From an uncultured Bacilli bacterium (GTDB lineage: Bacteria > Bacillota_I > Bacilli_A > RF39 > UBA660), in NCBI GenBank assembly GCA_947588685.1, contig CANPYM010000006.1:1-52945 (forward strand): a DNA stretch of 52,945 nt, given 5' to 3'. The notes beneath the pieces are model-generated. The model worked only from the letters and a program-made list of their open reading frames with translations, was not told the origin of the DNA and ran no database searches. This document shows positions 1 to 52,858 of this stretch, piece after piece (position 1 is the stretch's first letter; each line of letters begins with the position of its first letter). Made by a program: the position numbers and the translations under genes.

Positions 1-37
1 TCTTTAAGTTTATTACTTAATAGTTATGGAAGGCGGT

Positions 38-7245: not shown

Positions 7246-7286
7246 ATATATATCGCGAATTGTACGCTGATAAAGGAGAATGTCTG

Positions 7287-9977: not shown

Positions 9978-10075
9978 CTAATTTATAATATGTAATAAAT
10001 ATTAAAAAATAAATGGTATAATAAAATTTAGTTAATTCAAAAGTTTTGCAATTAAAAATATAGGTGGTGAATTTT

Positions 10076-10714
10076 GTGGATCAAAAAGATTTTGAATGGC
10101 GTTGGTGTCTTGTGGGTAATATTATTGATACCCGTCTATATGGCGAAGAACATGAATTAAAAGAAGGCACTAAAAATTTTTCACCAGGAACAAAAGTATA
10201 TGTTAATAGATCGCAGTGGGGAGATGGTGGAGATCAACTTATTGTTATTGGAAAACCGAAAGATAGAAAACAATATATTGAGTGCGTAATTAGAAGAGAT
10301 TTTATATGTAACTGGCGATTACAAAAAGTTTATTCTCCTACTGTTTTAAATAAGATAAAAAATTCTAAATGGGATTGGTGGAAAAATGATAATGCTAGCA
10401 AAAATTTAATTAAATATTTAGCAAAAGCAAGAAATGAAGATGAAAATCAAAATGAAAAATATCATTATAATACAATAAAAGATTTGACTATAAATATAGA
10501 AAAAATTTCATTATCAGAAGATACTTATAATAGAATCAAAAATCAATTAAATTTAAATAAAAGACAAATCATTAAATATTGCAAGAATAAAATATTGGAT
10601 AATGAATGTAACATTTATAGAGATGGTAGGAAATTTTATTGTGAAGTAGAAAATTTGAAAATTGTTATTAATGCAATTAATTATGAGATTTTATCCATAG
10701 AAGTTAATAAGTGA
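10076..10714 (+). CDS. Hypothetical cargo protein of integrated element 1
   Basis: A soluble protein of 212 residues with no function I can name. The N-terminal half is rich in Trp and Gly (WRWCLVGNIIDTRLYGEEHE, then FSPGTKVYVNRSQWGDGGDQ) and looks like a small beta-rich domain. The C-terminal half is Lys/Asn-rich and helical. There is no signal peptide or membrane helix. The GTG at 10064 lies inside the ribosome-binding stretch AGGTGG (10062-10067), so the GTG at 10076 is the better start. A TATAAT at 10017-10022 suggests its own promoter. It is the only gene between two copies of the secA tail and is more AT-rich than secA, consistent with acquired DNA. The reading frame is real by RBS, promoter and length; function is open. 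Confidence 0.7.
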   Translation: MDQKDFEWRWCLVGNIIDTRLYGEEHELKEGTKNFSPGTKVYVNRSQWGDGGDQLIVIGKPKDRKQYIECVIRRDFICNWRLQKVYSPTVLNKIKNSKWDWWKNDNASKNLIKYLAKARNEDENQNEKYHYNTIKDLTINIEKISLSEDTYNRIKNQLNLNKRQIIKYCKNKILDNECNIYRDGRKFYCEVENLKIVINAINYEILSIEVNK

Positions 10715-10750
10715 AATGTTAAATTATATTAGTTAAACGAATGAAAACAA

Positions 10751-10769
10751 TGTTTCCATTTTGTTTCCA
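10751..10769 (+). repeat. Right-arm TGTTTCCA pair of element 1
   Basis: Two direct TGTTTCCA octamers at 10751 and 10762 have the same 11-bp spacing as the first two copies in the left arm. The bases between and just after them also match the left arm. A stretch rich in ATAAATACTA/ATAGTAA-like sequence follows up to the attachment repeat at 10904. No gene is seen between 10715 and 10904. Confidence 0.6.
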
Positions 10770-10903
10770 AAATACTAAATATTTATAGTAATAATAGTAA
10801 CATAAATACTATATATACTAAATGTTTCTTGTCCAATGCTTTCAACGAATAACAATAGTTACACATAGTAATATAAATACTATAAATATCAAAAGCGCAA
10901 GAG

Positions 10904-10970
10904 CATGTGGTAGTGGTAAGAAATATAAGAACTGTTGTGGTAAATAGCCCGTAAAATAAGGGTTTGCGAG
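10904..10970 (+). repeat. Attachment-site-like repeat, copy 2 (secA tail duplicate)
   Basis: This 67-bp near-perfect copy of 9730-9796 still encodes the last residues of the SecA zinc motif and its stop codon, but has no SecA body in front. It marks the junction between elements 1 and 2, serving as attR of the first and attL of the second. Confidence 0.8.
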
Positions 10971-11007
10971 ATTTTGAAAAATGAAAAAAATCGCAAAAAA
11001 ACCAAAA

Positions 11008-11094
11008 TGTTTGTAAAATGTTTGTAATCTTTATAAAATGTTTGTAAAAATTGGCTGAAACCCTTATAAATAAAGGAATTTCCATTTACAAACA
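11008..11094 (+). repeat. Left-arm TGTTTGTA repeats of integrated element 2
   Basis: Direct TGTTTGTA octamers start at 11008, 11019 and 11039, and an inverted copy (TACAAACA) starts at 11087. Offsets are 0, +11, +31 and +79, identical to four of the sites in element 1 although the last three bases of the octamer differ. This reads as the arm-site array of a related recombinase with shifted specificity. Confidence 0.65.
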
Positions 11095-11106
11095 AATTTA
11101 TAAACT

Positions 11107-11138
11107 AAAAAGATAGCATTCGATTGCTATCTTTTTTT
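11107..11138 (+). terminator. Intrinsic terminator at the left end of element 2
   Basis: A 12-bp perfect stem (AAAAAGATAGCA / TGCTATCTTTTT) with a 6-nt loop and a T run lies at the position equivalent to the terminator at 9944 in element 1. Confidence 0.75.
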
Positions 11139-11169
11139 CTCCGTTCATATAGAAAAAGGAGGAAAAGTA

Positions 11170-11244
11170 ATGGGTAATGTTTATGTTCAAAAAAGAGGTA
11201 ATGTATTTCAATATCAATTTCAGATTTCTTCTGTGGATAAATAA
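11170..11244 (+). pseudogene. Integrase N-terminal remnant
   Basis: An ATG preceded by a strong Shine-Dalgarno AAGGAGG encodes only 24 residues (MGNVYVQKRGNVFQYQFQIS, then SVDK) before a TAA. The sequence resembles the start of the arm-binding domain of phage/ICE tyrosine integrases, which typically open with a short KRGN-Y-YQFEI-type strand followed by a GKRK segment. The rest of the integrase is missing. Its place immediately inside the attachment repeat, next to arm-type sites, is where such integrases are normally encoded. The match is by eye and short, so alternative explanations remain. Confidence 0.5.
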
Positions 11245-11315
11245 AAAAACTTAAAAATTTCGTGATATAATACTGTTATAAATTAAATAGCTTTTATAAT
11301 GAAGAGGTGAAGAAT

Positions 11316-12389
11316 ATGTCTGACAATTCACATTATATTTATGTGTCCGTTACATATGATGATGACTATAGCGAAAAGAAGTACTTTTATAAAACTGATA
11401 ATGAAAATATAAAAGTAGGAGATAAGGTATTAGTCGATAGAAATGGTAATGAAGCTTATGGTACTATTGTAGAAGTTAACGTGTATGATGCTGAATCGAT
11501 TCCATATCCTATGGAAAAAACAAAAGAAATAATTAAAATTATAGACTATGATTATGATGAACATAAAAAAATAGAAGAATATCAAGATTTAATTATTAAT
11601 AATATGTTTGGAAGAATTTCTATAAAAAGATTAATGAAATTAAATAGTCCAAAAAATGGAGAAGATGGATGGGAGTTGTTTTATTATCCAAGATTTAATA
11701 CGTTTTTTTATAAATTAGATAAAAATACATATAAATTAGCCGAATATAAAGAGAACCTCATAACTGATGAAATGTTTAGTATTATTGAAAAAGAGTCTAT
11801 TAAAGTTAAGCAAAAGAGTTTTAAACGTAGTACAAAAAGTGATTCTTATATTAGAGCAGTTACCTTCTGTCAAGAAAATATGATACCTTATCACGATGAT
11901 ACAGATTTTCTTGAATTTAGGAAAGAAAAAGAAATGTTTTATAAAGATGACATAGAATCTGTTTCCGCCGAGCCAAAGAATTTCAATTCGATTGAAGATA
12001 TCAAACAATATTTGAAAAATGAATATGTTTCTGCATACTGGAAAACTCCTGATCCTAGTTATTTCATTGACAATGGAAAAATTATTCATTATGCTGGTTG
12101 GATTGAATATGATATGAGGGTGTTTAACATAATTGATTTTCTAGAGAAAAATGGATATGTTGATAGAAAATATTATGATAGAAAGAATTATCCTCAATTT
12201 TTTGATGAAAATTGGTATTCATATGACTATGAAAATTTGGACTTTGGTAGAGCTTCATACATGCTTCTAAGAATATTTAATATTGAAAGAATTTGTGAAG
12301 GTACAGTAAATTCAATGGCAGCCTCTGGAACACTATTAAAGCTTGTAGAAAGAGTTGAATATTTAAAGGAGAATAAATTAAATGAATAA
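11316..12389 (+). CDS. Hypothetical cargo protein of integrated element 2
   Basis: A soluble protein of 357 residues without a named function. The N-terminal 75 residues (YIYVSVTYDDDYSEKKYFY, then KVGDKVLVDRNGNEAYGTIV) form a small beta domain reminiscent of the PriA N-terminal fold, where a VGD-VLV motif is typical; this is only a resemblance. The C-terminal third contains aromatic-rich IIHYAGWIEYDMRVFNIIDF and a charged helical tail. There is no signal peptide. An in-frame GTG at 11307 overlaps the Shine-Dalgarno GAAGAGG, so the ATG at 11316 is preferred. A TATAAT at 11266-11271 gives a likely promoter between the integrase stub and this gene. It appears to have replaced the integrase body, making it the single cargo of element 2. 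Confidence 0.7.
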   Translation: MSDNSHYIYVSVTYDDDYSEKKYFYKTDNENIKVGDKVLVDRNGNEAYGTIVEVNVYDAESIPYPMEKTKEIIKIIDYDYDEHKKIEEYQDLIINNMFGRISIKRLMKLNSPKNGEDGWELFYYPRFNTFFYKLDKNTYKLAEYKENLITDEMFSIIEKESIKVKQKSFKRSTKSDSYIRAVTFCQENMIPYHDDTDFLEFRKEKEMFYKDDIESVSAEPKNFNSIEDIKQYLKNEYVSAYWKTPDPSYFIDNGKIIHYAGWIEYDMRVFNIIDFLEKNGYVDRKYYDRKNYPQFFDENWYSYDYENLDFGRASYMLLRIFNIERICEGTVNSMAASGTLLKLVERVEYLKENKLNE

Positions 12390-12431
12390 TATACCGATAC
12401 ATTTTGTTATTATTTGAACGGATGCAAACAA

Positions 12432-12450
12432 TGTTTGTAATTTGTTTGTA
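12432..12450 (+). repeat. Right-arm TGTTTGTA pair of element 2
   Basis: Two TGTTTGTA octamers start at 12432 and 12443, again 11 bp apart, followed by the same kind of ATAGTAACAATAGTT / CATAAATACTAAATGTT sequence seen in the right arm of element 1. This pairs the right end of element 2 with its own left-arm motif. Confidence 0.6.
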
Positions 12451-12583
12451 AAATGTAAGTGTTTCATAGTAACAATAGTTCTATAAATAACATAAATACT
12501 AAATGTTACCAAATCCACAAACCATTGAAATAACAGTAATAACACAAATATCATAAATAACATAAAAAATTAATTTAAATGAG

Positions 12584-12627
12584 CTTGTGGAAGTGGAAAG
12601 AAGTATAAGAACTGTTGTGGGAAGTAG
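12584..12627 (+). repeat. Attachment-site-like repeat, copy 3 (distal secA tail)
   Basis: This segment encodes CGSGKKYKNCCGK and a stop, with several synonymous differences from the SecA tail at 9730 but a 22-bp identical central block ending in AACTGTTGTGG. It is followed by a terminator, so it may be the original secA 3' end displaced by the insertions, or the attR of an older insertion. Confidence 0.7.
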
Positions 12628-12675
12628 TAGGTTTTATAAGGGCTTCCAAATAGGAACATTTTATAATAAAATTGT

Positions 12676-12700
12676 AAATCAGCATTCGTGCTGATTTTTA
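12676..12700 (+). terminator. Terminator, possibly the displaced secA terminator
   Basis: A 9-bp stem (AAATCAGCA / TGCTGATTT) with a TTCG tetraloop and short T run lies 49 nt after the third secA-tail copy. Confidence 0.75.
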
Positions 12701-12714
12701 ATTTATATCAAGCA

Positions 12715-12739
12715 ACATATGGTAAAAAATACTATAAAT
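12715..12739 (+). promoter_or_regulatory. Operator-like palindrome 1 upstream of pnuC
   Basis: ACATATGGT, a 7-nt spacer, then ACTATAAAT. This imperfect inverted repeat matches the palindrome at 12756 in its left half-site and in six of nine bases of the right one. It lies just upstream of the -35 box. Binding protein not proven; the NrtR-like regulator encoded at 15276 is the obvious candidate. Confidence 0.5.
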
Positions 12740-12742
12740 ATA

Positions 12743-12771
12743 TTGACAATCATAAACATATGGTGTAATAT
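12743..12771 (+). promoter_or_regulatory. Strong sigma-A-type promoter of the pnuC operon
   Basis: A perfect TTGACA (12743-12748), a 17-nt spacer and TAATAT (12766-12771). The -10 lies inside palindrome 2, so a bound regulator would block RNA polymerase. Confidence 0.8.
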
Positions 12772-12780
12772 ACTATATGT
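12756..12780 (+). promoter_or_regulatory. Operator-like palindrome 2 overlapping the pnuC -10 box
   Basis: ACATATGGT, a 7-nt spacer, then ACTATATGT: eight of nine positions are symmetric. It is 41 bp (about four helical turns) from palindrome 1, which would place two dimers on the same DNA face. Positioned for repression. Confidence 0.6.
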
Positions 12781-12795
12781 AAGGAGATGATTGTT

Positions 12796-13347
12796 TTGTT
12801 TTTAGAAATCGGAGCAACGATTTTGGGTTTGATTCAAGGATTATTGGTAATGCTTAATAAAAGGAGTAACTGGGTCTTTTATGTTTTACAAATGGCCTTC
12901 CTAATTGTTTTTTCTCTCATTAACCACTTATATGGCGATGTCGTTAATAATAGTATTTACTTTATTATGGGTATCATTGGTTTTATTCTTTGGAATAGAG
13001 AAGGTACAAATAAGATTACAAGTGTAAGTATTAAAGGAAAAATCACATATGTAGTTTTAATTGCTTTAGGAACAATTGGTTTATCAGTAATATTAAGTAA
13101 GACAGATGATCCACTTCCTGTGTTAGATTCATTTACAACAGTATCTAGTTTGGTAGCTACATACTATATGATGAAGAAAAAGCTTGACACATGGATTATT
13201 TGGTTTGTAAATGATATTTTTTATGCTGTAGAATATTTTATTTTGCCGGATCAAGCTTTGTATTTGTTTGCTCTTAACTTAATTTGGACTATTATGGCTG
13301 TGGGTTCTTATGTCAACTGGAGAAAATTAATGAAAGAAGGTAAATAA
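12796..13347 (+). CDS. pnuC: PnuC-family nicotinamide riboside transporter
   Basis: An integral membrane carrier for nicotinamide riboside or a related nucleoside, feeding NAD synthesis. The 183 residues contain about six or seven hydrophobic helices. The Trp/Asn-rich helices of the PnuC family are visible: RSNWVFYVLQMAFLIVFSLI, VNNSIYFIMGIIGFILWNRE and TWIIWFVNDIFYAVEYFILP. The ATG at 12787 directly abuts the Shine-Dalgarno AAGGAG (12781-12786), which is too close; TTG at 12796 with a 9-nt spacer is the likelier start. It is the first gene after the promoter with two palindromes, and its stop overlaps the next ATG. The NrtR-like regulator in the same run of genes strengthens the NAD-precursor assignment; other pnu-type substrates such as thiamine or riboflavin remain possible. 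Confidence 0.85.
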   Translation: MFLEIGATILGLIQGLLVMLNKRSNWVFYVLQMAFLIVFSLINHLYGDVVNNSIYFIMGIIGFILWNREGTNKITSVSIKGKITYVVLIALGTIGLSVILSKTDDPLPVLDSFTTVSSLVATYYMMKKKLDTWIIWFVNDIFYAVEYFILPDQALYLFALNLIWTIMAVGSYVNWRKLMKEGK

Positions 13348-13856
13348 TGATTAAAATATTTTATTCTGGTACTTATAATGTTAGACACGAACTTATTAAC
13401 AAAGATAACGTAGAAATAATGCTAAAAGAAGATTTAAGAAGTAAAATAGTGGGTAATGTTCATGATACTATATATGCCTCTGATGGTGTTGTATTAAAAG
13501 GAAATAAAAATGTTATGTATATTGGAGGGTTTTATTATGAAAAGGAGCATCCTGGAAAAACAGTATGTGAAAATGTTGTATATGAAGAATTGAAACAAAT
13601 TGATAAATGTGATTTGGTTATTGCTAATTTAACTAAGTATTCAGCTATCGCTTCTGTTACAGAAATATTATATGCGGCATTTCATAATAAAAAGATAGTA
13701 ATATTTTGCGATCCTGATGTAACTAGTTATGAAGTTGAAGGCGAGTATTGGTTCCCCATTCTAACTGCTAAACAACTAGATAAGAATATTGAAATAAAAT
13801 TTATAAAGGATGAAAAACAAATCATCGATTATATAAATAATCTAGGTGAAGTTTAA
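13347..13856 (+). CDS. Nucleoside 2-deoxyribosyltransferase-like protein
   Basis: A 169-residue protein with the Rossmann-like fold of nucleoside deoxyribosyltransferases and related N-glycosidases. Recognised by an N-terminal IKIFYSG strand, then YIGGFYYEKEHPGKTVCENV and the typical KCDLVIANLTKYSAIASVTE segment, in which the Glu would be the catalytic nucleophile position, followed by AAFHNKKIVIFCDP. The family cleaves or exchanges the N-glycosidic bond of (deoxy)nucleosides or their monophosphates. It overlaps pnuC by one base and precedes the CYTH-kinase gene by one base, so it is in the operon. In this NAD-related setting the substrate could be a nicotinamide nucleoside or an ADP-ribose derivative; that is inference. 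Confidence 0.65.
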   Translation: MIKIFYSGTYNVRHELINKDNVEIMLKEDLRSKIVGNVHDTIYASDGVVLKGNKNVMYIGGFYYEKEHPGKTVCENVVYEELKQIDKCDLVIANLTKYSAIASVTEILYAAFHNKKIVIFCDPDVTSYEVEGEYWFPILTAKQLDKNIEIKFIKDEKQIIDYINNLGEV

Positions 13857-13857
13857 A

Positions 13858-14745
13858 ATGGTTATAAAATCTGGTAAAATTGTTAATATCGAAAAGAAAT
13901 TTGTTTCTAGCAATATAACATATCTAAATAAATATTTAGAAAGTATTCATAAAATAGATGATGTAACTATAATTCAAGTATTTCATGATAACTATAAATA
14001 TCGAAAATATATAAGTGGTTGTGGATGTGAATATACTAAAAAATTTAAGAATAATGATATTAACATTGTAAAGAAAATATCTGAAAAACAGTTTAATAGA
14101 GTATTAGGATTATCAACAACAATAATAAGAAAAAGAAGAAGAACATATTTAGATGGTGTATATCAAATAGATGTTGATGATTTTGAAGAACCTAATATTT
14201 TCACAATGGTAGAGGTATCAAATGGGAACTTAAATAAATATAAAATACCCCAAGGATTTATTGAAGTTACTAATTTTGATGAATATCAAAATAAAGAAAT
14301 ATTTAAAGGATTTATTAAAAAAACGGGGATTATTATTGAAGGGACAGATGCTGTAGGAAAGACTGAAACAATAAAAAAATTACTATTGGATGGCATAATT
14401 TGTAAAGATAGAGAATCATCAGTTATATCTGCTAATATGGTATTTGATATTCCTATGGAAATGAGAGTGCAAAAATATAATGATTATTTAAAACAAACAC
14501 CGGATATAATAATTTTTTTAATTAACAATGATAAGAAAGAATTATTAAGAAGAGTACATTCAAGAAAAAAAGTGACAACTTTTGATTTGAAAACTTATGA
14601 ATATAATCAATTATATAAAGAAACTTATGAATATATGAAAGAACATCATATGTTACAAAACAAATTGTTTTTGATAGACTGTACAGGATTAGATATAGAA
14701 AAACAAGTAGAAAAAGTAAAAGAGGTAATTAATAAATATGCCTAA
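13858..14745 (+). CDS. CYTH-like domain fused to a P-loop nucleoside/nucleotide kinase
   Basis: A two-domain protein of 295 residues. The first half (about 1-150) resembles the CYTH triphosphate-tunnel fold: an RKYISG-type strand, the basic run IIRKRRRTYL, then GVYQIDVDDF and FTMVEVS, where alternating charged residues would line the tunnel. The second half is a small P-loop kinase of the thymidylate/ribosylnicotinamide kinase type, with Walker A GTDAVGKTE near residue 165, a PDIIIFLINND strand and an LLRRVHSRKK lid. The GTG at 13846 lies upstream of the Shine-Dalgarno and overlaps the previous gene; ATG at 13858 is preferred. Beside pnuC and an NrtR-like gene, a nicotinamide riboside kinase making NMN is an attractive but unproven role. 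A dNMP or dNK-like kinase is the alternative. Confidence 0.7.
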   Translation: MVIKSGKIVNIEKKFVSSNITYLNKYLESIHKIDDVTIIQVFHDNYKYRKYISGCGCEYTKKFKNNDINIVKKISEKQFNRVLGLSTTIIRKRRRTYLDGVYQIDVDDFEEPNIFTMVEVSNGNLNKYKIPQGFIEVTNFDEYQNKEIFKGFIKKTGIIIEGTDAVGKTETIKKLLLDGIICKDRESSVISANMVFDIPMEMRVQKYNDYLKQTPDIIIFLINNDKKELLRRVHSRKKVTTFDLKTYEYNQLYKETYEYMKEHHMLQNKLFLIDCTGLDIEKQVEKVKEVINKYA

Positions 14746-15286
14746 TATCAGTTCGCATATGATAGTTGCAAAACTAGTAAGTGAAAAACTGAATATAAAT
14801 GATCCCGATTTCATAAAAGGAAATATATTACCTGATATAGTCAATAATGATCAAAGTCATCATAAGATTCAAGGAGAATATTGCTTAATTCCAAATATTG
14901 ACTATTTTAAGCGAAGACTTAATTTAAATAAAAAGTTGGAATTAGGATATTTTACACATTTGCTTTTAGATAAATATTTTTTAGAAGAATATATACTAAA
15001 TAATATTAAAGATCTAAATATATTTGACAATAAACTTATTTACCAAGACTATGATTTTATCAATTATCAATTAGTTAAAAAATTTGATTTAGATGTTTTA
15101 GCTTTAAAAAAAATATTAAGTGAAATAGATGGTGATATTGATAAAAACAAATTAGAAAGAAATATAAAATATCTATCGAATAGCGAAACTAGTGAAACAA
15201 AATATTTAAATCTTGAAAAATTCTCTTCTTTCCTTTATAATGTATCTGAAAAAATAAGCGAGGAGTTAAAAAAATATGCAGGTTAA
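14738..15286 (+). CDS. Zinc-dependent phospholipase C-like / metal hydrolase family protein
   Basis: A cytosolic protein of 182 residues. It opens with PNISSHMIVAKLV and contains FIKGNILPDIV, then SHHKIQG, and GYFTHLLLDKYFLEEYI. The conserved His and Asp residues in these segments follow the pattern of the bacterial zinc-dependent phospholipase C-like family, in which they bind two or three metals. It is shorter than secreted phospholipases and has no signal peptide, so an intracellular phosphoesterase acting on a small metabolite is more likely. It overlaps the kinase gene by 8 nt and the NrtR-like gene by 11 nt, so translation is probably coupled. The substrate cannot be read from sequence. 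Confidence 0.55.
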   Translation: MPNISSHMIVAKLVSEKLNINDPDFIKGNILPDIVNNDQSHHKIQGEYCLIPNIDYFKRRLNLNKKLELGYFTHLLLDKYFLEEYILNNIKDLNIFDNKLIYQDYDFINYQLVKKFDLDVLALKKILSEIDGDIDKNKLERNIKYLSNSETSETKYLNLEKFSSFLYNVSEKISEELKKYAG

Positions 15287-15989
15287 TATAGTTTGCTGTT
15301 TATTTATTTTAAATAGTGAAAAAAATGAAAATATAAGAAAAAATGATATAAAAAAAATAAATGTCTTGACGAATCATTTGGGGCTGATCCCTAATTTTCC
15401 TTTAAAAAAAGGTGATATGAAAAAAACACTAAGGAAACATTTAGAAACGATAATTGGCTCTAATAAATTTCATTTAGAACAAGTTTATACTATGAATCAT
15501 AGCAGTAGCATTGATATTATTTATCTAGCTATAACAAATATGGAAAACGTAGTTAAATTAGATGAAGAATATGAAATGCGTGATTTTAAAATTGAAAAAA
15601 ATGAATTGATAACTTTTGGTAAAAATAATTATAAATATAAAACGATTGAGATAGAAGAAAACAATAATATTGAATATGTCCATGAAATTGCTGTAAGAGA
15701 TATTAAATTAAAAAGGGTTCTTTTAAGTTTATTAATTAGTTATAAAAAAATAAGGAGTAATATTGATAATACGGATATTTTATTTAAATTTTTAGGAAAG
15801 ACATTCACTTTGGAAGATGCTAGGATAGTTTATGAACTAATAAAGGATAAAAGCGTTGACAAGTCTAATTTTAGAAAAAAAATTATGAAGTATTGTGAAA
15901 AAATAGATGCTAAAGATTTAACTAAAAAAGGTTATAGACCTACCCAAAAATATAAATTTAAACCATTAAAAGGAGATGCATGGTTGTGA
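15276..15989 (+). CDS. NrtR-like transcriptional regulator (degenerate Nudix plus winged helix)
   Basis: A 237-residue putative repressor. The N-terminal half follows the Nudix fold of NrtR regulators, including the family hallmark HLEQVYTMNHSSSIDIIYLA, but the catalytic Nudix box is replaced by KGDMKKTLRKHLETIIGS, without the REXXEE residues, so it should sense rather than hydrolyse its ligand. The C-terminal part has the NrtR-type winged helix: LGKTFTLEDARIVYELI, then KSNFRKKIMKYCEKID and RPTQKYKFKP. In characterised relatives ADP-ribose or NAD metabolites bind the Nudix-like domain and release the repressor from palindromic operators. The paired palindromes at 12715 and 12756 in front of pnuC are plausible targets, giving an autoregulated operon. 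It overlaps rdgB by 10 nt. Confidence 0.8.
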   Translation: MQVNIVCCLFILNSEKNENIRKNDIKKINVLTNHLGLIPNFPLKKGDMKKTLRKHLETIIGSNKFHLEQVYTMNHSSSIDIIYLAITNMENVVKLDEEYEMRDFKIEKNELITFGKNNYKYKTIEIEENNNIEYVHEIAVRDIKLKRVLLSLLISYKKIRSNIDNTDILFKFLGKTFTLEDARIVYELIKDKSVDKSNFRKKIMKYCEKIDAKDLTKKGYRPTQKYKFKPLKGDAWL

Positions 15990-16549
15990 TTGCAGCTACT
16001 AATAATGAAGGAAAATTAAGAGAAATAAGGGCAATTTTAAATGATTATAAAATAGATTCATTAAAAGATAGAAACATTTCTATTGATGTTGTAGAAGATC
16101 AAGATACATTTTTAGGTAATGCAATAAAGAAAGCCCAAGAAATTTATAATATTACTCATGAAGACGTAATTGCTGATGACTCTGGTCTTTGTATTAACGC
16201 TTTAGATGGATTTCCTGGTGTTTTAACTCATCGCTTTTTGGGTGAAGAAGCAACTGATGAAATGCGAAATAACTATCTAATTGAAAAAACAAATAAATGT
16301 ACCAATAGAAGTGCAAAAGTAATCTGTTATATTGTTTATTATAATGGTAAAGAAACTATAGTTGGTGAAGGTATTTTAAATGGATATATTTCAAAAAAAA
16401 GAAGAGGGCTAAATGGTTTTGGGTTTGATGAAATATTTGAACTTCATAATGGGAAAACTTTAGCTGAATTGACTTCTAATGAAAAAAATGAAGTTAGTGC
16501 AAGAGCCCTAGCACTTAAGGATCTAAAAAGGAAATTAGCCAAAAATTAG
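15980..16549 (+). CDS. rdgB: RdgB/HAM1-type non-canonical purine NTP pyrophosphatase
   Basis: Hydrolyses dITP, XTP and related damaged purine triphosphates to monophosphates, keeping them out of DNA and RNA. The 189 residues match family length. The N-terminal IAATNNEGKLREIRAIL is the substrate phosphate-binding motif, and VIADDSGLCINALDGFPGV holds the catalytic Asp residues and metal site; GFGFDEIF and ELTSNEKNEVSARALA complete the pattern. Shine-Dalgarno AAAGGAG precedes the ATG at 15980; a GTG two codons later is an alternative. It is the last gene of the overlapping run that begins with pnuC. Confidence 0.92.
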   Translation: MVVIAATNNEGKLREIRAILNDYKIDSLKDRNISIDVVEDQDTFLGNAIKKAQEIYNITHEDVIADDSGLCINALDGFPGVLTHRFLGEEATDEMRNNYLIEKTNKCTNRSAKVICYIVYYNGKETIVGEGILNGYISKKRRGLNGFGFDEIFELHNGKTLAELTSNEKNEVSARALALKDLKRKLAKN

Positions 16550-16639
16550 GAAGAACTTTATTATATATGGATTAATATTATATGCTATTATTTAAATAGT
16601 AGGTCATTGTATAGTAATAAAAATAAATGAGGTATAAAA

Positions 16640-17062
16640 ATGAATAATGATCGTGTAAAACATTCTATATCAGTTGCAAGGAAAATGGTGAAAATTGCTC
16701 AAAGTAAACACTTAAGCACTGATGAAATTAATAATTGCTTTTTAATAGGTTATGTTCATGATATCGGGTATGAGTTTATAAAAGACGGTATGAAGCATAA
16801 CATTATTGGTGGAGAAATATTAAAAAATAGTGGTTTTAAGTTTTGGCAAGAAGTTTATTACCATGGCGAAATTAATCCTACTTATACATCTTTATACCTA
16901 GATATTTTAAATCAAGCTGATATGCAAATTGATAAAGATGGTAATGATGTTGGATATGTCGGAAGATTAAAAGATATCGAGGAAAGATACGGAAAAGATT
17001 CTGATGTATATAAAAATTGTCAAAAGTTAATAAATAAGTTAAAAGATAGTATGAATATATAA
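16640..17062 (+). CDS. Small HD-domain phosphohydrolase
   Basis: A 140-residue metal-dependent phosphohydrolase of the HD superfamily. The metal ligands are seen as an early His in VKHSISVARKM, the HD doublet in LIGYVHDIGYEF, and the later Asp in LNQADMQID. This is about the minimum length for a stand-alone HD domain. The ATG at 16640 has GAGGT upstream. It is separated from rdgB by 90 nt and closely followed by a histidine phosphatase gene. Substrate is probably a nucleotide, judged only from family and neighbours. Confidence 0.75.
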   Translation: MNNDRVKHSISVARKMVKIAQSKHLSTDEINNCFLIGYVHDIGYEFIKDGMKHNIIGGEILKNSGFKFWQEVYYHGEINPTYTSLYLDILNQADMQIDKDGNDVGYVGRLKDIEERYGKDSDVYKNCQKLINKLKDSMNI

Positions 17063-17071
17063 GAGGTGATA

Positions 17072-17713
17072 ATGATGAAAACAATCGTTTATATTTCAAG
17101 ACATTCTAAACCACTTAAAAATTTAGTTGAAACTTATGATGCTAAAGAAAGTGAGCAAATTAGAAACGAAAAAAATCCTTTAAGTGTTGAAGGTGAGAAT
17201 CTTGCTTTAAAAATGAGTATGTACGAAGATTTGCAAGATATTGATGTTATCTATTCTTCACATTATGTTAGGACAATGTCAACAGCTAAATACATCGCTT
17301 TAAATAATCATATTAAGTTAAATGTTGATGAACGCTTTGGCGAAAGAAAATTTGGACTTGATGGTGCAACTACTCTTCCTGATAATTATTTCGAAGATCA
17401 ATTTCGTAATTGGGATTATAAGTTGCCACTTGGTGAGTCATTAAATGAGGTTGCCGATAGAATGAAATCTGGATTTGATGATTTACTTAAAGCTAATGCC
17501 GGTAAAAAAGTAATGCTTGTATCACATGGAACAGCATTAAGTGCGATGTTTAGTAAGTGGTGCACAGTTAAATTAAATGAGGCAACTAAATTAGTTGAGA
17601 TATACTTTAAAGATAGACTAGTTTTTGATGGAAATTGGGATGCACCAGAGTTATTTAAGTTAGAGTTTGAGGATACTGAATTAATAGATATTAAAAATAT
17701 TAAGTGGCACTAA
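17072..17713 (+). CDS. Histidine phosphatase (phosphoglycerate mutase-like) family protein
   Basis: A 213-residue phosphatase with a phosphohistidine intermediate. The N-terminal motif YISRHSKPLK is the RH-x catalytic box with Ser in place of the usual Gly. IDVIYSSHYVRTMSTA and the C-terminal VMLVSHGTALSAM carry the other active-site Arg and His. The GTG at 17066 overlaps the Shine-Dalgarno AAGAGGTGAT, so the start is the ATG at 17072 or the adjacent one at 17075. The gene is 9 nt from the HD hydrolase and ends at a strong terminator. Related proteins act on sugar phosphates or nucleoside monophosphates; a mutase role is unlikely without further conserved residues. Confidence 0.85.
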   Translation: MMKTIVYISRHSKPLKNLVETYDAKESEQIRNEKNPLSVEGENLALKMSMYEDLQDIDVIYSSHYVRTMSTAKYIALNNHIKLNVDERFGERKFGLDGATTLPDNYFEDQFRNWDYKLPLGESLNEVADRMKSGFDDLLKANAGKKVMLVSHGTALSAMFSKWCTVKLNEATKLVEIYFKDRLVFDGNWDAPELFKLEFEDTELIDIKNIKWH

Positions 17714-17718
17714 GCCAT

Positions 17719-17751
17719 AAAAAATACTAACATTAGGTTAGTATTTTTTTT
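17719..17751 (+). terminator. Intrinsic terminator after the histidine phosphatase gene
   Basis: A 13-bp stem (AAAAAATACTAAC / GTTAGTATTTTTT) with a 5-nt loop and T run. The ISL3-type element begins immediately after the last T. Confidence 0.85.
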
Positions 17752-18156
17752 GGTTGTATTATAAATAGTGTTGGTGAGAAAAATCACTGACACTATTTTA
17801 TTTTATAAAAAGACATAAGTTTGATACAATGTAATTATCCAAAAAACATAGAAAGGATCAAAACTTATGTCTATAAATAATTATATCTTAAATTTACTAA
17901 ATATTGAAGATAAAAATATCTTTATTAATACAAATAATATTCAAACTAAATCTATTAAAGGAAAAAACTATAAAATCATTGAAGCTTTTCTGACATATAT
18001 GCCTGAATATTGTCCTCATTGTGGCGTTGTCAATAAATCTTCTGATGATATTATTAAATGGGGCTTTAGAAAAAACTGTATTGTTAAAATCCCTAAACAA
18101 GGTAATTGTTTAACTAGATTAATTCTTCATAAACAAAGATTTCTTTGTAAACATAC
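17752..18156 (+). mobile_element. Truncated ISL3-family insertion sequence (left end only)
   Basis: Starts with an end repeat whose inner 14 bases (AAATAGTGTTGGTG) are identical to the sequence near the right edge of the window (52880-52893); over 25 positions the two ends agree at 20. About 90 nt later a transposase reading frame begins. Homology to ISL3 stops near 18156, where sequence belonging to the convergent ATPase gene begins. No right end is visible. Confidence 0.7.
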
Positions 18157-46697: not shown

Positions 46698-48893
46698 ATG
46701 CAGGAATGGAATGGTTTTAAAGGAACCAAATGGCAACAAGTAATTGATGTAGAAGATTTTATTTTAAATAATTATCAAGAATACAAAGGTAGTTCGGATT
46801 TTTTAAAGGGGATTAGTAAAAAGACGACGAGATTAACAAGTCGTATTTCTAAATTACTTACGAAAGAAGATATTACCGGTCTTTTAGACGTTGAAACATC
46901 ATCTTTAACAAGTATTGATGCTTTCGAACCAGGCTATATTGATAAGAAAAATGAAATTATTTTAGGATTACAAACTGATGATCCTTTAAAGCAGGCAGTC
47001 AATCCTCTTACACTAGATACTTCTATTGATGTGCTTAAAAATAATGGCTATCGTTTTGAACGTAGTGTCATCGATAATTATCATGCTTTTAATGATACTT
47101 ATGAAGAAAATCTTGATGAAGTAACTACAAAGGAAATTAAAAAATTTAAAGAAGTTCATATACTAGATGGTATGCCTGATAATTATGGCCGAGGTTTTAT
47201 GCTAGGCGATTATCGGCGCTTACCTCTATATGGTATTGATTATTTAATTGCGCGTAAAGAACATGATTTAAATCGTTTAAGAAAAGATATTAATTATTCA
47301 GTTATTAGAACAAGAGACGAAGTTGTAAAGCAAATAAAAGCTCTAAAACAAATAAAAATTTTAGCTTTAAGCTATGGCGTCGATATATCAAGGCCTGCTA
47401 GTAATGCTAAAGAAGCTTTTCAGTGGCTATATTTTGCCTATCTTGCTGTTAGTAAAGAGACTTGTGGTGCATCTATTCCCGTTGGTAACAATAGTGCCTT
47501 TTTAGATATATATCTTGCTCGTGATTTGGAGTTAGGCATTATAACGGAAGACGAGGCTCAAGAATTAGTTGATCAGTTCATCTTAAAACTTCGTTTAATA
47601 AGATGTGTTCGTAATGCTGATTTTAAAATGATGCTTATGGGCCGAAATACGTTAGTAACCGAAACAATCGGTGGTGTTCATAAAGAACATTCTCTTATTA
47701 CCAAAACGGCTTATCGCTTTTTAAATACGATTGAGACATTAGGATTATATCCAAGTCCCTCTTTTACAATTTTATGGTCCACGAAAATGCCTAACAATTT
47801 TAAAAGATATTTAGCTAAAGTAATGATGAAACATAACTGTTTGTGTTTTGCTAATGCTGATGCTTTAGGAAGTAGTAATTATGCTACTAACGGTCTAGCA
47901 AGCAGTTCAAAAATTGGAAAACAAATTGATTATAACGGCGGTAGTTGTAATTTAGCTAAAATCCTTCTTTATGCTATCAATGGTGGCCGTGATGAGTTAA
48001 CGGGTGAGCTTATTATTGATGGTGTAGCACCTTTAGATGATGCGACATTGACTTATTCAAAAGTTGTTCGTAATTTTGCTGTGGTTTTAAAAAAATTGGT
48101 GACTATCTATGCGGATAATCTAAATACCATTCATTATATGCACGATAAATATGGTTATGAAAGTTCATTAATGGCTTTTAATGATACCGTTGTTGAACGT
48201 TATATGACCTTTAATATATCAGGTTTTGCTACGCTTGTTGATTCTTTGTCAGCTATTCGTTTCGCTAAAGTGAAAGTGAATCGTGATGAGAATGGTTTAA
48301 GCACTGATTTTGTAGTTACAGGTGATTATCCCCATTATGGATGTGGGCTAGATGCTGTCGATAAATTAGCTAGTGATATTATAAGACTTATTAGCCGTGA
48401 ATTAGCAGCGCATCATATGTATCGTAATGCTGTTATTAAATTAGGACTTCAAAGCGTTGGTATGAGTATTTTATATGGTATGAATACTGGTACTACACCT
48501 GATGGTCGTTTCCGTGGTAGTGCTTATTCTTTTAATGCCGATTCAGGTGAGATTAAAAATACTAATGGATTACTTAATGCTCTAAAAAGTGTTATGCGAA
48601 TGCCAAGTAAACTATGTAGTGGTGGAATTATGACTACTATCAATGTTAATGCTTTAACTCTTGGTAGTAAAAGAACCGAACGGGCGGAAAACTTAATTGG
48701 CCTTTTAGATAGCTATTTTAAACAAAATGGTAGTGTTATTGCCATAAATATTATTGATAAAAAGCAGTTACCTACAAATGATAAAGCTGATGATCTTATC
48801 TTAAATGTTGGAGGCATTGTTACGCGTCATAGTGATTTACCAGAAAACATTAAAACAGCTCTTTTTGACCTAACATATTATGATAAACTATGA
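46698..48893 (+). CDS. Pyruvate formate-lyase homologue lacking the catalytic Cys pair
   Basis: A full-length (731 residues) relative of PflB. Global similarity is evident: LGDYRRLPLYGIDYLI, SNAKEAFQWLYFAYLAV, NLAKILLYAINGGRDE, LNTIHYMHDKYGYESSLMAF, TGTTPDGRFRGSAYSFNAD. In PflB the segment between these ends in IACCVSPM with two active-site cysteines; here the aligned stretch SNYATNGLASSSKIGKQ (about residues 393-409) has none. The nearest Cys, in GGSCNLAK, aligns with a non-catalytic position. The glycyl-radical loop (RVSGYAVRF in PflB) reads NVGGIVTRH, with the Gly kept. So acetyl transfer by the known mechanism should be impossible. Its stop overlaps the gene for an equally altered activase homologue. 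Possible roles are regulatory, structural or a new chemistry; none is demonstrated. Confidence 0.85.
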   Translation: MQEWNGFKGTKWQQVIDVEDFILNNYQEYKGSSDFLKGISKKTTRLTSRISKLLTKEDITGLLDVETSSLTSIDAFEPGYIDKKNEIILGLQTDDPLKQAVNPLTLDTSIDVLKNNGYRFERSVIDNYHAFNDTYEENLDEVTTKEIKKFKEVHILDGMPDNYGRGFMLGDYRRLPLYGIDYLIARKEHDLNRLRKDINYSVIRTRDEVVKQIKALKQIKILALSYGVDISRPASNAKEAFQWLYFAYLAVSKETCGASIPVGNNSAFLDIYLARDLELGIITEDEAQELVDQFILKLRLIRCVRNADFKMMLMGRNTLVTETIGGVHKEHSLITKTAYRFLNTIETLGLYPSPSFTILWSTKMPNNFKRYLAKVMMKHNCLCFANADALGSSNYATNGLASSSKIGKQIDYNGGSCNLAKILLYAINGGRDELTGELIIDGVAPLDDATLTYSKVVRNFAVVLKKLVTIYADNLNTIHYMHDKYGYESSLMAFNDTVVERYMTFNISGFATLVDSLSAIRFAKVKVNRDENGLSTDFVVTGDYPHYGCGLDAVDKLASDIIRLISRELAAHHMYRNAVIKLGLQSVGMSILYGMNTGTTPDGRFRGSAYSFNADSGEIKNTNGLLNALKSVMRMPSKLCSGGIMTTINVNALTLGSKRTERAENLIGLLDSYFKQNGSVIAINIIDKKQLPTNDKADDLILNVGGIVTRHSDLPENIKTALFDLTYYDKL

Positions 48894-49429
48894 AAGGTAA
48901 AATAACTGATATTGATCCTATGTCCTTTAATAGTGGACCGGGTATTAGATTTGTTTTAACACTTGATGATGAGGAAAATATATCTTTAACTCCTAAAGAG
49001 ACAATTGACCGAATTCGTAAGTTTCGTCCCTATTTTGGGCCTGATGATGGTGGCTTAACATTTAAAGGTAAAAATCTTTTTGCTGAAATAGATTATATAA
49101 GTGAGACTTGTCATATTGCCCATAAGGCAGGAATTACAACGTGTCTTATGACAAACGGACATAATTATGAGAAAAATTGTGTCCAATTTAGGGATATTGA
49201 CTTTATTATACTGGAAATTTCTAGTATCCCGTTATATAATTATGATAAGTTAGATGATAAGACCTTTTTAGCAATTGAACAATTTATAATGGATGCCATA
49301 ACAAGTGGCGAAAAAGTATTTTTTAAACCAATCATTAGCGAAATGGTAACAGATAAAGATGCATATCTTCTTGCCCTAGAAAATTACGCCCATACTTTTA
49401 GTTATGAGATTGTTATTGTTGATGAATAA
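48890..49429 (+). CDS. PFL-activating-enzyme homologue lacking the radical-SAM cluster motif
   Basis: A 179-residue relative of PflA (about 246 residues in E. coli). The N-terminus MKGKITDIDPMSFNSGPGIR aligns with the PflA start that ends in DGPGIRF, but the following loop with CxxxCxxC, which binds the 4Fe-4S cluster, is deleted: after GPGIRFVLTLDDEENISLTP the sequence resumes in the helix before RKFRPYFGPDDGGLTF. The SAM-binding GGEP becomes KGKN. The later AGITTCLMTNGHNYE is conserved. The C-terminal third of PflA is missing. Overlap of 4 nt with the PFL homologue implies coupled translation and joint function. It should not perform radical chemistry. Confidence 0.85.
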   Translation: MKGKITDIDPMSFNSGPGIRFVLTLDDEENISLTPKETIDRIRKFRPYFGPDDGGLTFKGKNLFAEIDYISETCHIAHKAGITTCLMTNGHNYEKNCVQFRDIDFIILEISSIPLYNYDKLDDKTFLAIEQFIMDAITSGEKVFFKPIISEMVTDKDAYLLALENYAHTFSYEIVIVDE

Positions 49430-49441
49430 GAGGAGGAGTTT

Positions 49442-50563
49442 ATGGAAAAGAAAGTAAAAATAGTTTCAACAATTTATTTTATTGTTGTAGCTATTATCGT
49501 TTTCACAAGTGATAACGTCAAATTGTTTGCGACAGCTCTAGATTATATAGCTTGTGGTAGTGCGACTGGTATACCTAAACCCATTCCTCAGGTTATAACA
49601 ATTGGTTATACTTTATTGATGGTTGGAACGCCCATTGTTCTTATCACATCATCGATTATAACTTTAGTTAAAGCGATAGTCGAAAGTGATCAAGAAAAAA
49701 TATTAAAAGCCCGAAATGTGTTAGTGCGTAAAGCTATATTAGCTGTTTTGGTATTCTTTACGGCATCAATAGTTAGATTTATATCTTCTAAGGTTGCCAG
49801 TACGGCTGACGACAAAAGCACTGTTGCGAAATGTTTGAATTGCTTTATTTATTATAATAATAATGATTGTCGACCTTCAAAGATTGATGCTCATTCTGAA
49901 GATGGTACTTACAATGAAAATTATGGTGATGTTAGTACATATACTGGTGGGACTAAACCGCATGGTGAGAAGACAATTTTAATTGGCGATTCTCGTACTG
50001 TAGGTATTTGCGGTAGTACCTCGAGAACGGCAGTTACTGATTGCCGTGATGGCGTTTTGGCTGTCCGTCAAGGTGCAGCCTCAAACACAGGAGCTCACGA
50101 TAGATTTGGATGGGGTGTATGGTTTGATAATGAAGCTATTCCAGCTGTGACAACTTATGTAAAAGAACATCAAAGTACGATATTTAATATTGTTATTTTA
50201 ATGGGAGTTAATGACTTAGGATTAACAGCTGAGCAGGCTTCGGATAATTATATCGCTGATATTGAACGTATGGCTAATGGAGACTGGAAAAGACATAGTA
50301 TCGTTTTTGTATCGGCTGGGCCAATAAAACCAGGAACTTCTTATGGTATAGGTGGATGTGTTACTCAATCCAAAATTGACGAGTTTAATAGATTAATGGG
50401 TGAAAAAATAAAGAACAAAAATTTCCATAATGTCACTTACTGTGACATAGTTGATAAAGTTGAGTGGTTATTCCCTAGTAATGATAATGTCCATTATTCT
50501 TACCCAAATGGAAATACTAATTATTTTAATGGTATTATGGATAATTGCGGTTTAAAAAATTAA
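49442..50563 (+). CDS. Surface protein: VirB2-like N-terminal module plus SGNH hydrolase
   Basis: A 373-residue protein. The first about 140 residues form a module shared with the next two genes: signal-like helix, small-residue junction (FATA), LDYIACGSATGIPKPIPQ, two membrane helices (TIGYTLLMVGTPIVLITSSI; KAILAVLVFFTASIVRFISS) separated by a basic loop, then CLNCFIYYNNNDC. The topology is that of VirB2/TrbC pilins. After a Ser/Thr/Tyr-rich linker comes an SGNH/GDSL hydrolase-like domain: ILIGDSRTVG (block I Ser), LMGVNDLG (block III Asn) and a C-terminal DNVHYSYPNGN with the His. It probably deacylates a surface glycan or lipid. AGGAGG precedes the ATG; 12 nt after the activase homologue. 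Confidence 0.8.
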   Translation: MEKKVKIVSTIYFIVVAIIVFTSDNVKLFATALDYIACGSATGIPKPIPQVITIGYTLLMVGTPIVLITSSIITLVKAIVESDQEKILKARNVLVRKAILAVLVFFTASIVRFISSKVASTADDKSTVAKCLNCFIYYNNNDCRPSKIDAHSEDGTYNENYGDVSTYTGGTKPHGEKTILIGDSRTVGICGSTSRTAVTDCRDGVLAVRQGAASNTGAHDRFGWGVWFDNEAIPAVTTYVKEHQSTIFNIVILMGVNDLGLTAEQASDNYIADIERMANGDWKRHSIVFVSAGPIKPGTSYGIGGCVTQSKIDEFNRLMGEKIKNKNFHNVTYCDIVDKVEWLFPSNDNVHYSYPNGNTNYFNGIMDNCGLKN

Positions 50564-50600
50564 CTTGTTACGAAGATTATTGGAATACGGATGTGATATT

Positions 50601-51731
50601 TTGAAAAAAAAGATTGTATATTATATGGCTCTAACCTTTTTTACAGCGTTGCTTTTAGTAGTTGTTAGTAAAAATGATGTTGCTTATGCGCTAGATTATG
50701 TTGCTTGTGGTGATGCAACGGGTATACCAAAACCAGTCCCACAAATGACTACTATTGCATATACATTGTTATTAGTTGGAGCGCCGCTTGCCTTAATTAT
50801 TGCCGCTATATCCTCTTTAACAAAAGCAATTTCTAGTGGTAATCAAGAAAATGTTTTAAAAGCTAAAGATAAACTATTCAAAAAATTCTTTATAACAGGA
50901 TTTGTTTTCCTTGTTGCTGGTGTGGTTCAATTTACATTGACAAGGGTCACTAGTACAGATAGTGATAAAAATACAGTTTCTGCTTGTTTGAGTTGCTTTT
51001 TATATTATAATGGGTGTGAAGAGTCTGATTTGGAATATAGTTCTGAACAAGGAACTAGTTCATCTGGATATACTGATGCATCTACATATGATGGAACTGT
51101 TAGTCATAAAAATGGGAACTATTTAAAATATTATAATGCGCTTACTATTTTGCATTCTGGCCAAATACCTGAAGATAATACGGTATCATTATTTGAAAAT
51201 GCTGGCCAAGCTCATTTCTATGGTGCTGAATGTGACTTACAAATGCACAATAATACTTTATATTGTTATCACAATTCTGTAACTTCTAATACGGCGTCTT
51301 TTGCTAAATATATGGAAATTTGTAAAAAGTATAATATGATAGCGCTTTTAGATCTTAAAGGCGGTACTTCAACTCTAGATGCCTTGGCAAAATATGTCAA
51401 AGCTAATGATGCCCAAAAAAGAATTATTGTTCAAACGTCTAGTACATCATCAATGCAATATTTAACTGATAAATTACCCGGAACAAAATATTGGTATTTA
51501 ATTATGAGTAGTGGTCAATTTAGTACATTTAGTAATGTTGATTATAAAAAATACAATATAACCGGTGTCAATGTTGAAAGGACAATTTCTAAAAGTCGAG
51601 TTGATACACTTAAAAGTTATAAAAACAAAGGCTTAGAGGTATGTGTTTTTTCATGGGCTAAATGGAGCGATAGTGATAAAAAACTGTTTTCTGATGCTGG
51701 GGTCGACTATATAATGACAAACTCAGCTTAG
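50601..51731 (+). CDS. Surface protein: VirB2-like N-terminal module plus GDPD-like domain
   Basis: A 376-residue paralogue. The N-terminal module repeats the pattern: VAYALDYVACGDATGIPKPV, helices TIAYTLLLVGAPLALIIAAI and FITGFVFLVAGVVQFTLTRV, and CLSCFLYYNGC. The C-terminal domain contains SLFENAGQAHFYGAECDLQM, LYCYHNS, MIALLDLKGG and a final AGVDYIMTNSA, the order of a glycerophosphodiester phosphodiesterase TIM barrel (E-x-D and H pair, then D-K, then the C-terminal strand). It may act on lipid or teichoic-acid phosphodiesters outside the cell. The start is uncertain: TTG at 50601 gives a clean signal segment and has GGATGTGAT upstream; another TTG at 50565 would add 12 residues. Confidence 0.75.
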   Translation: MKKKIVYYMALTFFTALLLVVVSKNDVAYALDYVACGDATGIPKPVPQMTTIAYTLLLVGAPLALIIAAISSLTKAISSGNQENVLKAKDKLFKKFFITGFVFLVAGVVQFTLTRVTSTDSDKNTVSACLSCFLYYNGCEESDLEYSSEQGTSSSGYTDASTYDGTVSHKNGNYLKYYNALTILHSGQIPEDNTVSLFENAGQAHFYGAECDLQMHNNTLYCYHNSVTSNTASFAKYMEICKKYNMIALLDLKGGTSTLDALAKYVKANDAQKRIIVQTSSTSSMQYLTDKLPGTKYWYLIMSSGQFSTFSNVDYKKYNITGVNVERTISKSRVDTLKSYKNKGLEVCVFSWAKWSDSDKKLFSDAGVDYIMTNSA

Positions 51732-51796
51732 CAAATAATCGCAATTGTATATTTTTTAATAAGTTGGTATAGTTATAATGGATAGGTGATATTGAT

Positions 51797-52858
51797 ATGA
51801 AATACAATAAAAAATTAATATATTGGTTATTCGGTATAGCGTTAACATTTAGCGTAACGTTTATAACATCTAGTAGTACTGTCTATGCCTTAGATTATGT
51901 CGCTTGTGGTGATGCGACAGGTATACCAAAACCTATTCCAATGTTTACAACTATCGTATATACATTGCTTATTGTTGGTGTGCCACTTGCTTTAATCATC
52001 TCGTCTATTATTACTTTGGTAAAAGCTATTACAAGTGGCAATGCCGATAATGTAGTAAAGGCTAAAAATAAGCTTTTAAAAAAAATTATTATAGCTGCAG
52101 TAGTTTATTTAACGGCTGGATTAGTTAAATTTATTATTGGAAAGGTATCAAGTACTGAACAAGATAAATCGACGGTTGGTGACTGCTTAAATTGCTTTTT
52201 GTATTATAATGGTTGCACTGAATCAGAGTCTGGAAATCATACTGAACAAGGAACATATACTTCCGACTATACTGATGTATCTACTTATACAGGACTTAAA
52301 GTTGGAGAGGCTCTAACCGAAGAAGAATTTTTGAAAGAATTGAACAAATTAGATAAAGCCCCTACTTATGAGGAACTAGTAGAACTTGCTGATAAACTTT
52401 ATAAGATGCCGGAGAGTGTATTCAAGATGGTTTTTGGATGGGCCGCTAATGAGGGATATGACTCAGAAAGAAATAATGCCGGCAAGATAGATTATTATTT
52501 AGCTTATTTATCGGATTCTATTGGTATTAATTTTTATATGGGTACTAATGATGCTCAAACGGCTGATGCTATGGCCGCTAAAATTGGTGGTGCCGCTGCA
52601 TCACAATATGCGGTATGGCTTCCAAGGGCAGCTGAAGAAGCAATAAATAATCCAAAGGGGAATGCAATTACGTATAAGATTATGTATATTGTATTGCTAC
52701 ATCCTGATGAAAAAGCTCATGACTGCGATGGCTTATCCAATTACACTCCTTATGGCGGTAAGGTATATTATGATGCTGGATATTATGGAAAATATCCTAT
52801 TAAGGTGTGGACTTTAGACTATGAAGTTGATGTCCATTGGAAAGAAAAACTAAGATAG
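51797..52858 (+). CDS. Surface protein: VirB2-like N-terminal module plus unknown domain
   Basis: A 353-residue paralogue with the same first 140 residues (VYALDYVACGDATGIPKPIP; helices TIVYTLLIVGVPLALIISSI and IIAAVVYLTAGLVKFIIGKV; CLNCFLYYNGC). After the linker EQGTYTSDYTDVSTYTGLKV it has an acidic helical hairpin (EEFLKELNKLDKAPTYEELV) and a domain starting VFKMVFGWAANEGYDSERN, with HDCDGLSNYTPYGGKVYYD near the end. I do not recognise this domain; the WAANEG segment could include a catalytic Glu as in lysozyme-like folds, but that is speculation. A TATAAT at 51774-51779 and GGTGAT before the ATG indicate its own promoter. Confidence 0.75.
   Translation: MKYNKKLIYWLFGIALTFSVTFITSSSTVYALDYVACGDATGIPKPIPMFTTIVYTLLIVGVPLALIISSIITLVKAITSGNADNVVKAKNKLLKKIIIAAVVYLTAGLVKFIIGKVSSTEQDKSTVGDCLNCFLYYNGCTESESGNHTEQGTYTSDYTDVSTYTGLKVGEALTEEEFLKELNKLDKAPTYEELVELADKLYKMPESVFKMVFGWAANEGYDSERNNAGKIDYYLAYLSDSIGINFYMGTNDAQTADAMAAKIGGAAASQYAVWLPRAAEEAINNPKGNAITYKIMYIVLLHPDEKAHDCDGLSNYTPYGGKVYYDAGYYGKYPIKVWTLDYEVDVHWKEKLR

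What the first reader, a model, noticed from the sequence alone, without database searches (positions are those of the whole stretch)
49442..52858. Three tandem proteins with one VirB2-like membrane module and three different C-terminal domains
About 140 N-terminal residues are shared (LDYxACGxATGIPKPxP, two helices, CLxCFxYYN) while the C-termini are an SGNH hydrolase, a GDPD-like domain and an unknown domain. This looks like a modular surface-display family built on a pilin-like two-helix scaffold, possibly assembling into mixed oligomers that carry enzymes. Conserved Cys outside the helices suggests disulfides.
Basis: partly seen in the sequence, partly recalled or inferred. Interest (0 to 1): 0.82.

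Follow-up and report, generated by a model that had tools for sequence, protein, structure and literature searches.

The report
Pilin-anchored surface enzymes in gut Bacilli
Three neighbouring genes of an uncultured gut bacterium share one membrane-spanning module, related to the pilins of type IV secretion machines, and carry three different enzyme-like heads on the outside of the cell; related bacteria show many more such combinations.

Summary
ORFs 49442-50563, ~50601-51731 and 51797-52858 share a ~160-residue N-module (46-59% identity) and have unrelated C-termini: SGNH hydrolase, GDPD-like, and an orphan domain. The module is a Sec signal, a Cys-bearing motif, two long helices with a Lys-rich loop (so both ends outside), and CxxC...C; four cysteines are invariant in 24 of 24 rows. 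The window modules miss Pfam's T4SS_pilin cut-off. Homologous modules pass it, four of them on enzyme fusions in other genera (SGNH, C39-like, CHAP, NlpC/P60).

The module occurs in 79 of 85 genomes of one GTDB family. Its short paralogs sit in a chromosomal cluster with VirB4, VirD4, a TrbL/VirB6-like protein, a VirB11/TadA-type ATPase and wall hydrolases. I collected 31 fusions from 16 genomes in 10 genera, mostly with cell-wall enzymes; enzyme type changes at least 19 times on the module tree.

Best reading: pilin-derived tethers holding envelope-modifying enzymes at the surface, probably working with this secretion system. Incorporation into a pilus is untested. VirB4 was not found in the window's own assembly, but flanking SmpB, RNase R and U32 genes are missing too, and a near-identical relative has the cluster.

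The parts
49442..50563 (+). p1: pilin-like module (aa 1-165) + SGNH hydrolase domain
   Evidence: ORF; RBS AGGAGGAG before ATG; Pfam Lipase_GDSL_2 E 0.0021, below cut-off; SGNH residues conserved 7 of 7
49442..49936 (+). N-module of p1 (signal peptide, C38 motif, TM1, loop, TM2, C131/C134/C143)
49937..50563 (+). SGNH C-domain of p1
   Evidence: profile matches PDB SGNH-type proteins 2hsj E 1.6e-5, 9kr0 E 5.9e-4
50601..51731 (+). p2: pilin-like module + GDPD-like domain (tool ORF starts 50565; TTG 50601 preferred)
50604..51077 (+). N-module of p2
51078..51731 (+). GDPD-like C-domain of p2
   Evidence: Pfam GDPD 28.2 bits, cut-off 23.6, profile 126-240 of 244; 43% identical to a second fusion in G003
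51797..52858 (+). p3: pilin-like module + orphan domain
51797..52285 (+). N-module of p3; helices 46-79 and 83-116 predicted
   Evidence: AlphaFold2 model; T4SS_pilin E 0.19 over both helices
52289..52858 (+). orphan C-domain of p3 (conserved E, H, D/E, C, GGKVYY)
   Evidence: strong matches in 3 of 389 genomes, all this genus; no Pfam, NCBIfam, PHROG or fold match
46698..48893 (+). neighbour: pyruvate formate-lyase-like gene; start of the diverged block
   Evidence: 79% nt identity to G011 against 97.6% for ligA just before it; gene name recalled from sequence
48890..49429 (+). neighbour: PFL-activase-like gene
   Evidence: 76% nt identity to G011; gene name recalled from sequence

Best explanation
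p1-p3 are extracellular envelope-modifying proteins, each tethered to the cell membrane by a hairpin that descends from VirB2-like T4SS pilins. Sec exports the N-terminus and the signal peptide is cut; the two helices stay in the membrane with the Lys-rich loop inside; the cysteine clusters and the enzyme head lie outside. Heads (SGNH esterase, GDPD phosphodiesterase, orphan domain; in relatives M23, NlpC/P60, CHAP, C39, amidase, VanY) act on peptidoglycan or its attached polymers. The tether places them at, or in, the chromosomal T4SS-like apparatus of the family, doing the job of VirB1-type wall hydrolases and of surface remodelling. Shown: shared module, homology to the pilin paralogs of the T4SS cluster, head swapping, conserved residues. 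Inferred: topology, catalysis, partnership with the T4SS.
For: Module homologs over the T4SS_pilin cut-off (26.6 bits) as N-domain of enzymes: L106 SGNH 36.3 bits, L080 C39-like 39.1, L105 CHAP 33.1, L125 NlpC/P60 29.2; also locus-2 orthologs and a G004 fusion just at the cut-off. Paralogs in a cluster with VirB4, TrbL, T2SSE ATPase, M23, VirD4 and SpoIID-C39. VirB4 in 71 of 85 family genomes, 80-92% identical to the first of ten aligned. Predicted hairpin 46-79/83-116. Four Cys invariant in 24 of 24 rows. 31 fusions, at least 19 changes of enzyme type. Locus 2 lies 18-23 kb from VirB4 in eight genomes (G001, G004, G005, G008, G009, G024, G061, G080; read).
Against: Window modules fail the Pfam cut-off. 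No fusion that I saw lies inside the VirB4 operon itself; the locus-2 linkage may be mere chromosome synteny, and locus 1 (this one) sits by pyruvate genes. 15 of 16 fusion genomes have VirB4, but so do 71 of 85 family genomes, so that is no association. No VirB4 was found in the window's assembly. No localisation or activity data.
Confidence: 0.55

Rival explanations
1. Plain membrane anchors: a duplicated pilin hairpin was co-opted only to tether wall enzymes, with no contact to the T4SS.
For: Many fusions sit at two chromosomal spots beside housekeeping genes (PFOR; U32/GreA), not in the VirB4 operon. The window modules form a separate starred clade of 24 rows, 100/99, apart from the core pilins.
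Against: Pilin-family features beyond two helices (CG motif, CxxCF..C) are kept in the window's type; near-identical modules carry different heads, suggesting that the module matters.
Confidence: 0.3
2. Antibacterial effectors carried by a pilin or T4SS and aimed at neighbours, in the manner of polymorphic toxins.
For: Variable heads on a constant trafficking module; wall-active heads; p1-p3 differ from G011 by 32-39% in DNA while genes upstream are 96.6-97.6% identical.
Against: No room for immunity genes between p1, p2 and p3. p2 of G011 has no head at all (154 aa). SGNH recurs at the same locus in several genomes, unlike a fast-changing toxin.
Confidence: 0.08
3. Not pilin-related: two hydrophobic helices of ordinary membrane proteins, with chance similarity.
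For: Other membrane families also give weak Pfam scores. Fold hits are generic hairpins (best Z 8.3, rmsd 1.9, 53 aligned).
Against: The T4SS_pilin cut-off is passed by several homologs; the iterated HMM settles near 155 hits and gives 0 on shuffled proteins.
Confidence: 0.05

Closest known systems
VirB2-like pilin arrays of Patescibacteria T4SS (PMC12102498, passages read)
   Same: Monoderm, chromosomal T4SS with VirB4, coupling ATPase, VirB6 and tandem divergent T4SS_pilin paralogs; reduced genomes
   Different: Different phylum; here some paralogs carry C-terminal enzymes, which the passages I read do not mention
PF18895 T4SS_pilin
   Same: Two-helix stretch aligned nearly end to end with the profile in many homologs
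   Different: Window copies score below the cut-off; long C-terminal heads
VirB1-type and Gram-positive T4SS wall hydrolases
   Same: Heads such as M23, NlpC/P60, CHAP are of the same kinds (recalled)
   Different: The anchor is a pilin hairpin; some heads (SGNH, GDPD) are not wall hydrolases of that type
NCBIfam Mbov_0395 pilin-like and pLS20_p028 conjugation proteins
   Same: The L106 protein gives weak scores to both over its module (19.2 and 29.8 bits)
   Different: Far below their cut-offs (40 and 150)

Membership tests
PF18895 T4SS_pilin | Score over the curated cut-off, window proteins | tested here: not met
   p3 12.3 bits, p1 and p2 not listed at E<=1; cut-off 26.6
PF18895 T4SS_pilin | Score over the cut-off, homologous modules | tested here: met
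   34 of 144 genomes have a match over the cut-off; fusions L106, L080, L105, L125
VirB2-like pilin | Signal peptide plus two-helix hairpin | tested here: met
   Model helices 46-79 and 83-116; hydropathy
VirB2-like pilin | Fold match to a solved VirB2 pilin | tested here: inconclusive
   None listed
VirB2-like pilin | Paralogs coded with VirB4/VirB6/VirD4 | tested here: met
   In relatives only; not in the window's assembly
VirB2-like pilin | Polymerises into a pilus | not testable with these tools
   No multimer prediction or microscopy
SGNH hydrolase (p1) | Ser, Asn and His blocks | tested here: met
   GDS, GxN, DxxH in 7 of 7 rows; PDB SGNH matches; Pfam score below cut-off
GDPD (p2) | Pfam score over cut-off | tested here: met
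   28.2 against 23.6 bits, second half of the profile
GDPD (p2) | HR..E.D..HD catalytic motif (recalled) | tested here: inconclusive
   HSG, ExD and a second His present; the Arg and the Asp after the second His are replaced (sequence)

The most novel reading that the evidence does not exclude
A monoderm lineage builds a T4SS pilus, or pilus base, that is a mixed polymer of plain pilins, adhesin-bearing pilins (ectodomain before the module) and enzyme-bearing pilins (head after the module): an armed pilus whose heads are exchanged by domain swapping to cut or edit its own or a partner's cell wall.
Probability: 0.22. Interest if true: 0.88.

Novelty: new variant of a known kind. Interest (0 to 1): 0.7.

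Why it matters
[quoted passage not shown] Here is a second monoderm group, a whole family of gut Bacilli, with a widespread chromosomal T4SS-like cluster and a pilin array, and with pilin modules fused to enzymes. It offers a testable link between pilin evolution and wall remodelling, and a natural scaffold for surface display.

Tried and rejected
Rejected: shared module by chance (shuffle and reverse controls); origin of the module in a known mobile element (no match in plasmids, phages or viral contigs); true loss of the T4SS from the window's genome as the default reading, because SmpB, the RNase R ortholog and the small U32 gene are missing from the same assembly. G010 shows the same gap.

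Led nowhere: PDB sequence search of p1, of the module alignment and of the p3 C-domain; Foldseek and VIA-align on the full p3 model and on its C-domain alone (one chain of 641 with Z>=2); PHROGs and NCBIfam on the p3 C-domain; plasmids and phages for it. I suspected a SleB or lysozyme kinship by eye; nothing supports it. The C-domain labels 'SleB' (L009), 'lys' (L048_8275) and 'CHAPlike' (two of L044) in the tree script are by eye; Pfam named no enzyme for them.

Caution on names: TadB and TadC in my scripts are labels by position; Pfam gave no T2SSF match for the 301- and 261-aa proteins, and RcpC is below its cut-off; the T2SSE ATPase matches VirB11, TrbB and TadA models about equally, all below cut-off. 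The VirB4/module co-occurrence (70 of 71 against 9 of 14, Fisher p 3.3e-4, counted by hand) is largely trivial, since the module search also finds the pilins of the cluster.

Paper searches. None listed a pilin-enzyme fusion by title or abstract; this is no proof of absence from print. Read: passages of PMC12102498 and PMC12857230; all others only as search listings.

Full report
The three ORFs are real and tandem. The first starts 12 bases after a PFL-activase-like gene, and the last ends 87 bases before the contig end. Their first ~160 residues are homologous and their C-parts are not. Pfam recognises GDPD in p2 above its cut-off and SGNH in p1 below it; an alignment of seven SGNH heads keeps the catalytic blocks in 7 of 7 rows and finds solved SGNH proteins. 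The p3 head has strong matches in only 3 of 389 genomes, all of this genus (two more at E about 0.007), and no known fold by the tools used.

The module: a signal peptide ending before the ALDY stretch, a motif with Cys 37 (p3 numbering), two helices, CxxCF and a fourth Cys. In an alignment of 24 modules these four Cys are invariant. The loop between the helices is Lys-rich, so by the positive-inside rule both ends face outward (inference). AlphaFold2 (24 rows, mean pLDDT 72.4, block means 71-91 over the helices) gives helices 46-79 and 83-116. Fold search shows only a generic hairpin.

Distribution: the three-row profile hits 79 of 144 genomes, all 79 among the 85 genomes of the window's GTDB family. 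A broad profile over 392 genomes of the phylum hits 29: 18 of the family, mostly strongly, and 11 outside it, all weak, at most 28.1 bits. The set is essentially family-specific at this sensitivity. The organism is an uncultured Bacilli; the near relative G011 has contigs of the same lengths as two contigs of record CANQCR, a metagenome bin named Lapin. RF39 as its order is my guess, not tested.

Context: in relatives the short paralogs stand in a cluster with a T2SSE-type ATPase, a TrbL/VirB6-like protein (just below its cut-off), VirB4 (P-loop_TraG E 7.6e-13) and an M23 peptidase, followed by SpoIID-C39 and VirD4 (T4SS-DNA_transf E 2.9e-56). Some pilins there carry an ectodomain before the module. 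VirB4 is found in 71 of 85 family genomes. G000 and G010 lack it, but both also lack SmpB, the RNase R ortholog and U32b that flank the cluster in relatives, which points to missing sequence. G011, 96.6-97.6% identical in DNA over four genes beside the window's locus, has the cluster.

Fusions: 31 were collected from 16 genomes of 10 genera: SGNH 8, NlpC/P60 4, M23 3, C39-like 3, CHAP or CHAP-like 3, p3-type 3, GDPD 2, one each of Amidase_3, VanY and a weak GH99-like, and two unassigned. They were not drawn at random: loci were chosen from search hits and two syntenic spots, so the shares are not frequencies. One further N-module protein with an unassigned 217-residue tail (L028, G014), a p177-type protein hit at E 0.009 (L053) and copies cut by locus ends were left out of the tree. 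Locus 1: a module gene lies directly before PFOR in 6 of 10 same-genus genomes with PFOR (G003, G004, G005, G007, G010, G011; not G002, G006, G009, nor G000, whose PFOR is on another contig) and in G051 (found by its pilin hit), but in none of 28 other family genomes fetched there, some of them cut short by contig ends. Locus 2, before U32a-U32b-GreA: present in 8 of 9 same-genus genomes with U32b, and with NlpC/P60 or amidase heads in G024, G028, G061, G080; many other genera have no module gene there.

Swapping: on a tree of 54 modules enzyme type changes at least 19 times among 31 fusions (12 head types, so at least 11 changes were to be expected of any tree). In G068 four closely similar tandem modules carry SGNH, C39-like and two CHAP-like heads; in G004 two near-identical modules carry SGNH and C39-like. 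Between the window and G011, DNA identity falls from 97.6% (ligA) to 79% (pfl), 76%, then 64, 68 and 61% at p1-p3; PFOR is 99% identical as protein. In G011 p2 is a bare module of 154 residues. This looks like replacement by recombination.

Mechanism: see best explanation. The heads are mostly of wall-active kinds, as are the VirB1-type enzymes that open the wall for T4SSs (recalled). A pilin-derived tether that brings them to the machine is the simplest account; a plain anchor remains possible.

Noticed in passing
window 26-7183 and 7260-9773: 2385-aa protein with a VWA domain and nine DUF7601 stretches, followed by a complete SecA gene; possibly a giant surface protein with its own export ATPase.
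   Followed up: no
window 10001-18000: Low-GC stretch (22-28%) with a run of small co-directional genes; two have weak relatives on G000 contig C14.
   Followed up: no
L161, L190 (G000:C22:53000-67248): Before PFOR in this genome stand small WXG100-like proteins, a repeat protein and a 1534-aa FHA/EssC-like protein: looks like a type VII secretion island by eye, absent at that spot in G011.
   Followed up: partly
L041, L038, L039 and others: T4SS cluster pilins with large N-terminal ectodomains and the module at the C-end, adhesin-like mirror images of the enzyme fusions.
   Followed up: partly
L041 18236-18676: DUF5411 (PF17424, E 4.5e-46) next to the RcpC-like and ATPase genes; may belong to the machine.
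   Followed up: no
L077 6248-7786: Module fused to a weak GH99-like glycosidase (23.8 bits, cut-off 33).
   Followed up: no
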